A stretch of DNA of 64,000 nt from Sulfuriferula sp. (lineage in GTDB: Bacteria; Pseudomonadota; Gammaproteobacteria; Burkholderiales; Sulfuriferulaceae). Positions within the stretch are counted from its first letter, which is position 1. Each line of letters begins with the position of its first letter. A program made the position numbers and the translations under genes. Location of the stretch: positions 1 through 64,000 of the forward strand of contig JABFSE010000004.1 of NCBI GenBank assembly GCA_013140765.1, read 5' to 3'. Below the pieces are notes generated by a model, which did not search any database, was not told the DNA's origin, and was given only the letters and a program-made list of their open reading frames with translations. Below are positions 22,463 to 25,026 of this stretch, in pieces.

Positions 22463-24802
22463 TCAACCCCGTCCTTGTAGCTTGCCTATCAGTCGTTCAA
22501 CAGCACGTTCCGTCAATGAGCTAGACTTAATCACCCGCGCTTCACCCGCGCGCAAACGTGCGGCGAGTCGTGGTAAAGCAATCGTCATCGCGTCCAGACC
22601 TTGGTTATTAGTAAACAGATACATGCCGCGTAAGCCGCTGACCCAAGATAAGCGTACTTGGCGCGTACTCCCGTCAGGACGATCAAATGCCAGCCACTCG
22701 CCTTTTTTCAAGCAACGCGCTTGCTCAGTATATTCATCATCTATGTTCTCATCCGTTTCAGTCTCAAACGACGAGGACGAGGGCGCGGCTACGACTAGCA
22801 TATCGTCCAGATTTTCTACCGCATTATCTAACGCCAACATTTCTGGCAATACATCAGGCACATCAACTTGCGTCGCCTCAATTGCCTTCGCCATTTCGAC
22901 ATCGTTTAACGCAACCACCGATGCTTGCAAACCTGCTTTGACCGCAACAGCATGGCAAGCCACCAAACCTGCAAAAATAGCATCACGGCGTACACTGTCA
23001 ATATCTAAACGCTGTAAACCATCACGTAATTGATTAAGCAACGTAGGTAACATCGCCACCAATTTTAATCTATCCTCATTATTGAGCTTAGGCATGACGC
23101 TCCAAATCAGGTTTTGCATCGTCTGCACAGCTTGTTGCCAAGCCTCGCCTAATTCAGATGCCTGCATATACACCTGCATCAGCACTTGTTGCCATATCGT
23201 TTGCACAAACTCTCGCACCACCTCAGGTAAGGTCGTATAGCTTGCTAACGCATTATTGATTTCATCTTGCACGACAGCTTGTGCTAATTGTGCACGCTCT
23301 GCGTTCTCAATAATGTGCGCTGTTTCTGCGACAGCAGATTCTGCGTCGGCTTCATGCGTAGTGACAAAATCGTGTAAATCCAGTAACAAGTGCTCAAACA
23401 CAGTCGCATCATCGGTAAAATCATTCAGCACAGCCGACACAATAGTGTTAATTTGCGCATACAGTGCCGCGTTATATTCACCTTGATTATGCCAACCTAC
23501 CGACACGCGTGCGATTTCATCCAGCAAGCGTCGCGCAGGATGTGACTTTTTGGAAAAAAACTGCTTATCCAACATTGCCACTTTGAGTACAGGAATTTGC
23601 AAACGCCCTATCAAGGCTTTCAATTCAGCAGGGATATGCTCATCATCAAACACATAATCAAACAACATTGCGACTATATCTATAGTCAAACTATCAGCCT
23701 GATTATCTACTTGCACCAAGCCCGCATCACGCATATCACGCAACACATTGCTCGTTCCTGCCTGTATTAACGCAGGGTCAAAATCCGCATTAACCATCCC
23801 CGTATATTGCCCGCGCTGCAGGCTAGTTAAGGTTGCAATTTGCGCACCCAGTGCAATAGGCTCACCATGCGACATGGCTGTGGGCACACCACCCACAGGT
23901 GCAAACGCCGCACCTGCCCACCCCTGCCCAGTAGCTTGAGGATGCCCTCCTTGTGCAAATTGCTGACTTAATAACTGTTGCAACAATGCAAAAACATCTA
24001 TGCCACTGCCATCAGCACCTAATGCTTCCCCACCACCAGTACCAACATTATTATTACTACCACCAGCATTATTGCTAGAGGCTACTTGATGCCGTTCACG
24101 CGGTGCAGTTGCGCCTATTTTAATCGTCGGCAACACCCCTTTATCCACAAGATACTGATTTAACTGTTGATAGATAGCGGCAATAGCAGGTACTAAATGT
24201 GCGTCAAAATGTTGCAATAACACTAGGCGCATATTAGGCGTAGCTTCAACCACTTTACATGCTTCTAAAAAAGCATCACAAACTGCCTTAGGTGAAAGTG
24301 GGTTAGTCGCCGATTTATTATGTGCTTGGTTCAACAAAGCCGCCATACGCTGATCTAGCGCGGCCAAGGCTTCAACAGCATTGGCCTGCATACGCGTAGC
24401 CGTTTTGCTCAAAGCCAAGCTCTCTTCAAAAGCCGCTTCGTCAACCAAAGACAAATTCAAATCTACACTGCTCGCTGTCTTCTCCACTTGTGCATCAATT
24501 TGTATTTGTTTATCAAATTGCGTGACAAATTGACTGCGTAAGGCGACCGACAAAGACTCATTGCGATTACGTAATAAGTTTTGCACAGCATAGTATAGAT
24601 TGCGGGTTTCTAATAACGGGGAGCGATCGGCAAAATTCAATAAATCGTCTTCGATTTGACCACGATGCTCGTTCCAGACGCGATCAACCTCAATACAGAG
24701 CTGATCCCTGCATTGATGCAGTATAAGCAAAACCTCAGCCGCGCTTAACACGTTCCGAGATTTATCAAACTGCGACAAATTAACCACATTACGCTGACTC
24801 AT
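22463..24802 (-). CDS. DUF1631 family protein
   Basis: about 779 aa; MSQRNVVNLSQFDKSRNVLSAAEVLLILHQCRDQL, helical body, C-terminal KKGEWLAFDRPDGSTRQVRLSWVSGLRGMYLFTNNQG; start 24802 preceded by AGGAGGT. Confidence 0.82.
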   Translation of the reverse strand: MSQRNVVNLSQFDKSRNVLSAAEVLLILHQCRDQLCIEVDRVWNEHRGQIEDDLLNFADRSPLLETRNLYYAVQNLLRNRNESLSVALRSQFVTQFDKQIQIDAQVEKTASSVDLNLSLVDEAAFEESLALSKTATRMQANAVEALAALDQRMAALLNQAHNKSATNPLSPKAVCDAFLEACKVVEATPNMRLVLLQHFDAHLVPAIAAIYQQLNQYLVDKGVLPTIKIGATAPRERHQVASSNNAGGSNNNVGTGGGEALGADGSGIDVFALLQQLLSQQFAQGGHPQATGQGWAGAAFAPVGGVPTAMSHGEPIALGAQIATLTSLQRGQYTGMVNADFDPALIQAGTSNVLRDMRDAGLVQVDNQADSLTIDIVAMLFDYVFDDEHIPAELKALIGRLQIPVLKVAMLDKQFFSKKSHPARRLLDEIARVSVGWHNQGEYNAALYAQINTIVSAVLNDFTDDATVFEHLLLDLHDFVTTHEADAESAVAETAHIIENAERAQLAQAVVQDEINNALASYTTLPEVVREFVQTIWQQVLMQVYMQASELGEAWQQAVQTMQNLIWSVMPKLNNEDRLKLVAMLPTLLNQLRDGLQRLDIDSVRRDAIFAGLVACHAVAVKAGLQASVVALNDVEMAKAIEATQVDVPDVLPEMLALDNAVENLDDMLVVAAPSSSSFETETDENIDDEYTEQARCLKKGEWLAFDRPDGSTRQVRLSWVSGLRGMYLFTNNQGLDAMTIALPRLAARLRAGEARVIKSSSLTERAVERLIGKLQGRG

Positions 24803-24870
24803 TAAACACCTCCTCAACCATCATAACAATGGATGAATAGCGATAGGTATCATGGGCAAACCACCCACTT

Positions 24871-24945
24871 GGCAACCCCACTATCATGGCAAACATGCTT
24901 TAGACTGGTAGTTTTGCGTCCCCACCTTTCGATGAGTTTGCCGTT
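24871..24945 (-). ncRNA. Cyclic di-GMP-I riboswitch (GEMM-I) aptamer
   Basis: Minus strand ACGGCAAACTCATCGAAAGGTGGGGACGCAAAACTACCAGTCTAAAGCATGTTTGCCATGATAGTGGGGTTGCC: GGCAAA..., GAAA tetraloop on CATC/GGTG, GGGACGCAAA, GTCTAAAGC receptor, ATGATAG, GGGGTTGCC; about 70 nt upstream of DUF1631 ATG. Confidence 0.93.
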
Positions 24946-25026
24946 TACAAATGTTAGGCTTAAAACGAGACAGCCGACATTTTTTCATTGTAGTCCAAAT
25001 TGCGTAAAATAAAAGTGATTTTATGC

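What the first reader, a model, noticed from the sequence alone, without database searches (positions are those of the whole stretch)
24800..24950. c-di-GMP-I (GEMM-I) riboswitch controlling a DUF1631 gene
Seen: the minus-strand leader of the DUF1631 ORF holds a near-canonical GEMM-I aptamer (GGCAAA..CATC-GAAA-GGTG..GGGACGCAAA..GTCTAAAGC..ATGATAG..GGGGTTGCC), closed by GGCAA (24942-24938) with TTGCC (24875-24871). Known: GEMM-I RNAs bind c-di-GMP and usually control motility, pilus, surface or cytochrome genes. Inference: the uncharacterised DUF1631 protein is part of the c-di-GMP output network. I do not know whether this gene family is already listed as a GEMM target.
Basis: partly seen in the sequence, partly recalled or inferred. 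Interest (0 to 1): 0.85.

Follow-up and report, generated by a model that had tools for sequence, protein, structure and literature searches.

The report
c-di-GMP riboswitch before DUF1631 gene
A standard bacterial RNA switch for the signal molecule c-di-GMP sits in front of a gene of unknown function, and the same switch precedes the same gene in many related bacteria, which ties that protein family to c-di-GMP signalling.

Summary
The minus-strand leader of the DUF1631 gene contains a canonical c-di-GMP-I (GEMM-I) aptamer at 24952-24868: Rfam RF01051, 79.5 bits against a gathering score of 35. It is the only GEMM-I in this Sulfuriferula-like genome, which also encodes about 15 GGDEF domains. 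The arrangement is conserved. Among 150 relatives of the same GTDB order plus this genome, 28 GEMM-I aptamers in 28 genomes (11 families) lie 135-391 nt upstream of a DUF1631 match; about 0.03 are expected by chance. That makes DUF1631 the commonest GEMM-I target found there (next: S8 peptidases, 7). A class-wide sample outside the order gave no upstream association. The aptamers covary in the Rfam helices and keep the c-di-GMP-type G20, with one exception. A hairpin that competes with P1 follows it, and no terminator was found, so control is most likely translational; ON or OFF is unresolved. A paralogue in the same genome is a PilZ-DUF1631-GGDEF-EAL fusion, independent support for a c-di-GMP role. 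The aptamer class is known; I found no open-access report of this target.

The parts
25030..25100 (-). tRNA gene (anticodon loop CTTCCCAAG, read as Gly-CCC) directly upstream; the slot is syntenic in the genus
   Evidence: Rfam RF00005, 70.8 bits; tRNA also upstream of DUF1631 in same-genus loci; anticodon read from the sequence
24987..24992 (-). candidate -10 element TACAAT of the leader promoter, upstream of the aptamer; no good -35
   Evidence: sequence; similar ACTA[CG]AAT/ACTACACT elements at the same place in several same-genus leaders with and without aptamer; inference, not mapped
24948..24953 (-). 5' strand of P1 (CATTTG)
   Evidence: pairs with 24871-24866; CATTTG/CAAATG in most genus members, CACTTG/CAAGTG in L078; 5.30 of 6 pairs over 27 loci against 4.34 with swapped flanks, 0/2000
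24868..24952 (-). c-di-GMP-I (GEMM-I) riboswitch aptamer
   Evidence: RF01051, 79.5 bits; covariation on 28 relatives
24866..24871 (-). 3' strand of P1 (CAAGTG), shared with hairpin H2
24852..24868 (-). hairpin H2 (GTGGGT-GGTTT-GCCCAT), mutually exclusive with the end of P1; candidate expression-platform element
   Evidence: equivalent hairpin overlapping P1 visible in the 7 same-genus leaders inspected; regulatory role inferred
24807..24842 (-). hairpin H3 whose 3' arm contains the Shine-Dalgarno sequence GAGGAGG (24815-24809)
   Evidence: ViennaRNA fold; SD partly paired in both free and aptamer-constrained folds
22463..24802 (-). DUF1631 protein, 779 aa, ATG 24802 (conserved MSQRNVV start)
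   Evidence: PF07793 E = 2e-178; start supported by alignment of homologues

Best explanation
The element is a functional c-di-GMP-I riboswitch that controls translation of a single-gene mRNA for a DUF1631 protein. When c-di-GMP binds, the aptamer and its closing helix P1 (24953-24948/24871-24866) are stabilised. This competes with hairpin H2 (24868-24852) and re-sets the structure that leads into the Shine-Dalgarno hairpin H3, changing ribosome access. Shown here: the aptamer, its conservation, P1 covariation, the P1/H2 overlap, and the lack of a terminator match. Inferred: ligand binding, translational control and the chain H2 to H3 to SD. The sign is not determined; I lean slightly to ON (about 55:45). 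The DUF1631 protein is most likely an intracellular c-di-GMP output or effector protein (mostly helical, with an SH3/Tudor-like C-terminal barrel), because its paralogue is fused to PilZ, GGDEF and EAL domains.
For: RF01051 79.5 bits. It is the only GEMM-I in the genome, beside 15 GGDEF domains over the cut-off. In 28 of 151 genomes a GEMM-I lies upstream of DUF1631 on the same strand, against about 0.03 expected; in 18 of these genomes it is the only GEMM-I over threshold. 24 of 57 high-scoring DUF1631 matches have one and 0 of 57 matches of 150-400 bits do. Aptamer helices: 96.4% paired cells, 13 of 21 pairs with double changes, 0/500 shuffles as high. G20 kept in 27 of 28; G20 is the selectivity position (PMC9262584, PMC6274999). 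P1 covariation. No terminator match. PilZ-DUF1631-GGDEF-EAL paralogue.
Against: Seven same-genus species keep DUF1631 but have no aptamer over threshold, so the control is dispensable. Energy folding did not show a consistent change in SD access (mean -0.04; 3 up, 9 down of 26), and what tilt there is points to OFF. No expression or binding data. DUF1631 itself is not a PilZ domain by sequence or fold.
Confidence: 0.85

Rival explanations
1. The riboswitch acts on transcription, by Rho-dependent or unrecognised termination in the leader, rather than on translation.
For: No terminator separates the tRNA gene from the leader, so read-through could be regulated; Rho sites are not detected by the scan.
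Against: No intrinsic terminator-like site in 24700-25200; no terminator-like U-run seen by eye in the printed leaders of most of the 28 loci; the SD lies in a hairpin.
Confidence: 0.15
2. The aptamer binds another cyclic dinucleotide (3',3'-cGAMP), like GEMM-Ib RNAs of Geobacter.
For: GEMM-I and GEMM-Ib share the fold; 12 of 17 Geobacter sulfurreducens GEMM-I RNAs bind cGAMP (PMC8835794).
Against: The selectivity position is G in the window and in 27 of 28 associated aptamers; the published specificity switch is G20A (PMC6274999).
Confidence: 0.04
3. The aptamer is a relic that no longer regulates the gene.
For: Loss or absence in 7 same-genus species and one member with G20 changed to C.
Against: A full-length high-scoring match with intact core residues and canonical pairs and an intact P1.
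Confidence: 0.05
4. The target is the tRNA or an unannotated short leader ORF, and DUF1631 is only a neighbour.
For: A tRNA gene lies about 80 nt upstream of the aptamer.
Against: The tRNA is upstream of the aptamer, not downstream; across 11 families the aptamer stays with DUF1631, and in loci outside the genus that were scanned (L056-L058, L060, L073) no tRNA was reported beside it.
Confidence: 0.02

Closest known systems
c-di-GMP-I riboswitch (GEMM-I, Rfam RF01051)
   Same: Full-length match with all core motifs, GAAA tetraloop, G20, and covarying helices; lies in the 5' leader of a gene.
   Different: The target is DUF1631, for which I found no open-access report as a GEMM target; a P1-competing hairpin rather than a terminator follows the aptamer.
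GEMM-Ib (3',3'-cGAMP) riboswitches of Geobacter
   Same: Same overall fold.
   Different: G, not A, at the selectivity position.
DUF1631 (PF07793; NCBIfam relative PacR NF058594)
   Same: The protein matches the whole Pfam model (2e-178).
   Different: It scores 197.5 against a PacR cut-off of 1200, so it is not called PacR; no function was found for the family. UniRef names some Sulfuriferula homologues 'thymidine phosphorylase'; no Pfam support for that was seen.

Membership tests
c-di-GMP-I riboswitch (RF01051) | Covariance score above the curated gathering score | tested here: met
   79.5 against 35 bits, full length
c-di-GMP-I riboswitch (RF01051) | Conserved helices with compensatory changes | tested here: met
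   28 associated aptamers: 96.4% paired, 56 double-change cells against 11.1 in shuffles
c-di-GMP-I riboswitch (RF01051) | c-di-GMP-type G at position 20 (Vc2 numbering) | tested here: met
   G24942; 27 of 28 associated loci; mapping of the Vc2 numbering onto GGCAAA is from my own knowledge
c-di-GMP-I riboswitch (RF01051) | P1 closing helix | tested here: met
   CATTTG/CAAGTG; 5.30 of 6 pairs against 4.34 swapped, 0/2000
c-di-GMP-I riboswitch (RF01051) | Binds c-di-GMP and changes gene expression | not testable with these tools
   needs in-line probing, ITC and reporters
GEMM-Ib (cGAMP) subclass | A at position 20 | tested here: not met
   G
DUF1631 (PF07793) | Pfam match over the whole model | tested here: met
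   E = 2e-178, model 6-741 of 741
PilZ c-di-GMP receptor domain | PilZ match by sequence or fold in the window protein | tested here: not met
   no PF07238 match; the C-terminal barrel matches Tudor/SH3-like folds weakly, best E about 4e-3
PacR (NF058594) | Curated cut-off 1200 bits | tested here: not met
   197.5 bits

The most novel reading that the evidence does not exclude
DUF1631 is a previously unrecognised and, in betaproteobacteria, the most frequent target of c-di-GMP-I riboswitches, and is itself a c-di-GMP effector, so that the signal acts twice on one output: on its synthesis through RNA and on its activity.
Probability: 0.3. Interest if true: 0.7.

Novelty: new member of a known kind. 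Interest (0 to 1): 0.5.

Why it matters
DUF1631 is a widespread family (95 of 291 genomes sampled across the class) for which I found no assigned function. A conserved riboswitch gives it a signal, a testable regulation and a pathway. In this genome the only RNA-level c-di-GMP output found is this one gene, which makes it a clean system for asking what DUF1631 does. The within-genus presence and absence of the aptamer at one syntenic site also gives a natural experiment on riboswitch gain and loss.

Tried and rejected
Thermodynamic prediction of ON or OFF from SD accessibility: inconclusive. PilZ fold for the C-terminal domain: not supported; the best matches are Tudor/SH3-like domains and F-plasmid TraI, at weak significance. 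Solved relatives by sequence: only a spurious portal-protein match. Literature on PacR as a DUF1631 protein: nothing relevant in the open library. The original GEMM survey (PMC1950547) is not held, so its target list could not be checked. The extended DNA alignment A6 mis-registers the 5' flank, so P1 was scored by script instead; an earlier, looser P1 script was too permissive to discriminate.

Full report
What is there. A cmscan of the whole window against Rfam finds two families: a c-di-GMP-I aptamer at 24952-24868 on the minus strand (79.5 bits, gathering 35, full length) and a tRNA at 25100-25030. The aptamer ends 65 nt before ATG 24802 of a 779-aa protein that matches DUF1631 along the whole Pfam model. 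The TTG start at 24817 listed by the ORF finder lies next to the SD; homologues begin at the ATG. The gene downstream, 20660-22420, is convergent, so the mRNA probably carries DUF1631 alone.

Anatomy. The Rfam helices are all present. Over the 28 DUF1631-linked aptamers they are 96.4% paired, 13 of 21 pairs show changes on both sides, and no shuffle or slide comes near. The closing helix P1 lies outside, CATTTG (24953-24948) with CAAGTG (24871-24866). The nearest relative (L078) has CACTTG/CAAGTG and other genus members CATTTG/CAAATG. Scored over 27 loci with a linker of 3-7 nt, P1 gives 5.30 of 6 pairs against 4.34 with flanks swapped between loci, 0 of 2000 swaps as high. The selectivity position G20 (Vc2 numbering) is G in 27 of 28; the published change to cGAMP binding is G20A (PMC6274999; PMC9262584 calls the position a selectivity factor).

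Expression platform. No intrinsic-terminator-like site was found in the leader region. In the seven same-genus leaders inspected a hairpin (H2) can start inside or at the end of the 3' strand of P1 (window: GTGGGT/GCCCAT, 24868-24852), so P1 and H2 compete for the same bases (read from the sequences and folds). In the window the SD GAGGAGG lies in the 3' arm of a second hairpin, H3. This points to translational control. Folding with and without the aptamer enforced did not give a consistent change in SD access, so the sign is open. In two relatives (L064, L074) the free fold pairs the aptamer's 3' end with the SD, which would make binding an ON signal; that is the reason for my slight lean.

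Conservation and chance. The genome has one GEMM-I and 15 GGDEF domains above cut-off. Homologues identify the host as close to Sulfuriferula. In 150 relatives, all of the same order, plus the window genome, 106 GEMM-I matches and the DUF1631 matches were compared by position: 28 GEMM-I in 28 genomes lie 135-391 nt upstream of a DUF1631 match on the same strand. If GEMM-I fell before random genes about 0.03 would be expected (rough). The 28 genomes belong to 11 families by the labels. Of DUF1631 matches over 400 bits, 24 of 57 have the aptamer; of those at 150-400 bits, 0 of 57. The first genes after 53 of the other aptamers were scanned: S8 peptidase 7, CheW 3, MotB 2, FliD 2, PilZ 2 and others (automatic choice of the first ORF), so DUF1631 is the largest class. 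Across 291 genomes of the class, 49 with GEMM-I and 95 with DUF1631, comparing the listed positions by eye gave no upstream association except the window itself; in G375 a GEMM-I follows the DUF1631 gene. As far as sampled, the link is therefore a feature of the betaproteobacterial order.

Gain and loss. A tree of 59 DUF1631 proteins needs at least 8 changes of the aptamer label on well-supported branches (12 on the drawn tree), with labels more clustered than shuffles (quick method, some long branches). In the genus, 8 loci have the aptamer and 7 do not; several of the latter keep the same tRNA-DUF1631 slot with a shorter leader.

The protein. AlphaFold2 gives a mostly helical protein (mean pLDDT 80) with a small C-terminal beta barrel. 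PDB matches are weak; the barrel looks Tudor/SH3-like, not PilZ. A paralogue on C23 of the same genome is PilZ-DUF1631-GGDEF-EAL, which places the family in c-di-GMP signalling independently of the riboswitch.

Novelty. Three open-access papers mention DUF1631; none was found to link it to a riboswitch. Subscription papers and supplements were not searchable, so earlier listing cannot be excluded. The aptamer is an ordinary member of a known class with a conserved, apparently unreported target.

Noticed in passing
own genome C23, L179:1555-5037 (-): 1160-aa protein with PilZ-DUF1631-GGDEF (weak)-EAL domains; a second DUF1631 paralogue of 903 aa lies on C28 (L180:1437-4148).
   Followed up: partly
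L078:1501-1591: The closest relative's aptamer has C in place of G at the ligand-selectivity position 20, while the rest of the aptamer and P1 is intact.
   Followed up: no
L087, L088, L090, L092, L093, L094, L096: Same-genus DUF1631 loci without a detectable aptamer; several keep the tRNA upstream with a shorter leader, suggesting clean gain or loss of the riboswitch.
   Followed up: partly
G325: One genome of the class carries 14 GEMM-I matches.
   Followed up: no
G375:C32:89281-91992: A GEMM-I lies about 300 nt downstream of a DUF1631 match on the same strand, so it would control the next gene.
   Followed up: no
window 20660-22420 (+): 586-aa protein convergent with DUF1631 and next to alaS, with no Pfam or NCBIfam match.
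   Followed up: no
PMC10455584: A DUF1631 gene is listed among the changed genes in a chitin-response study of Jeongeupia; its leader was not examined here.
   Followed up: no
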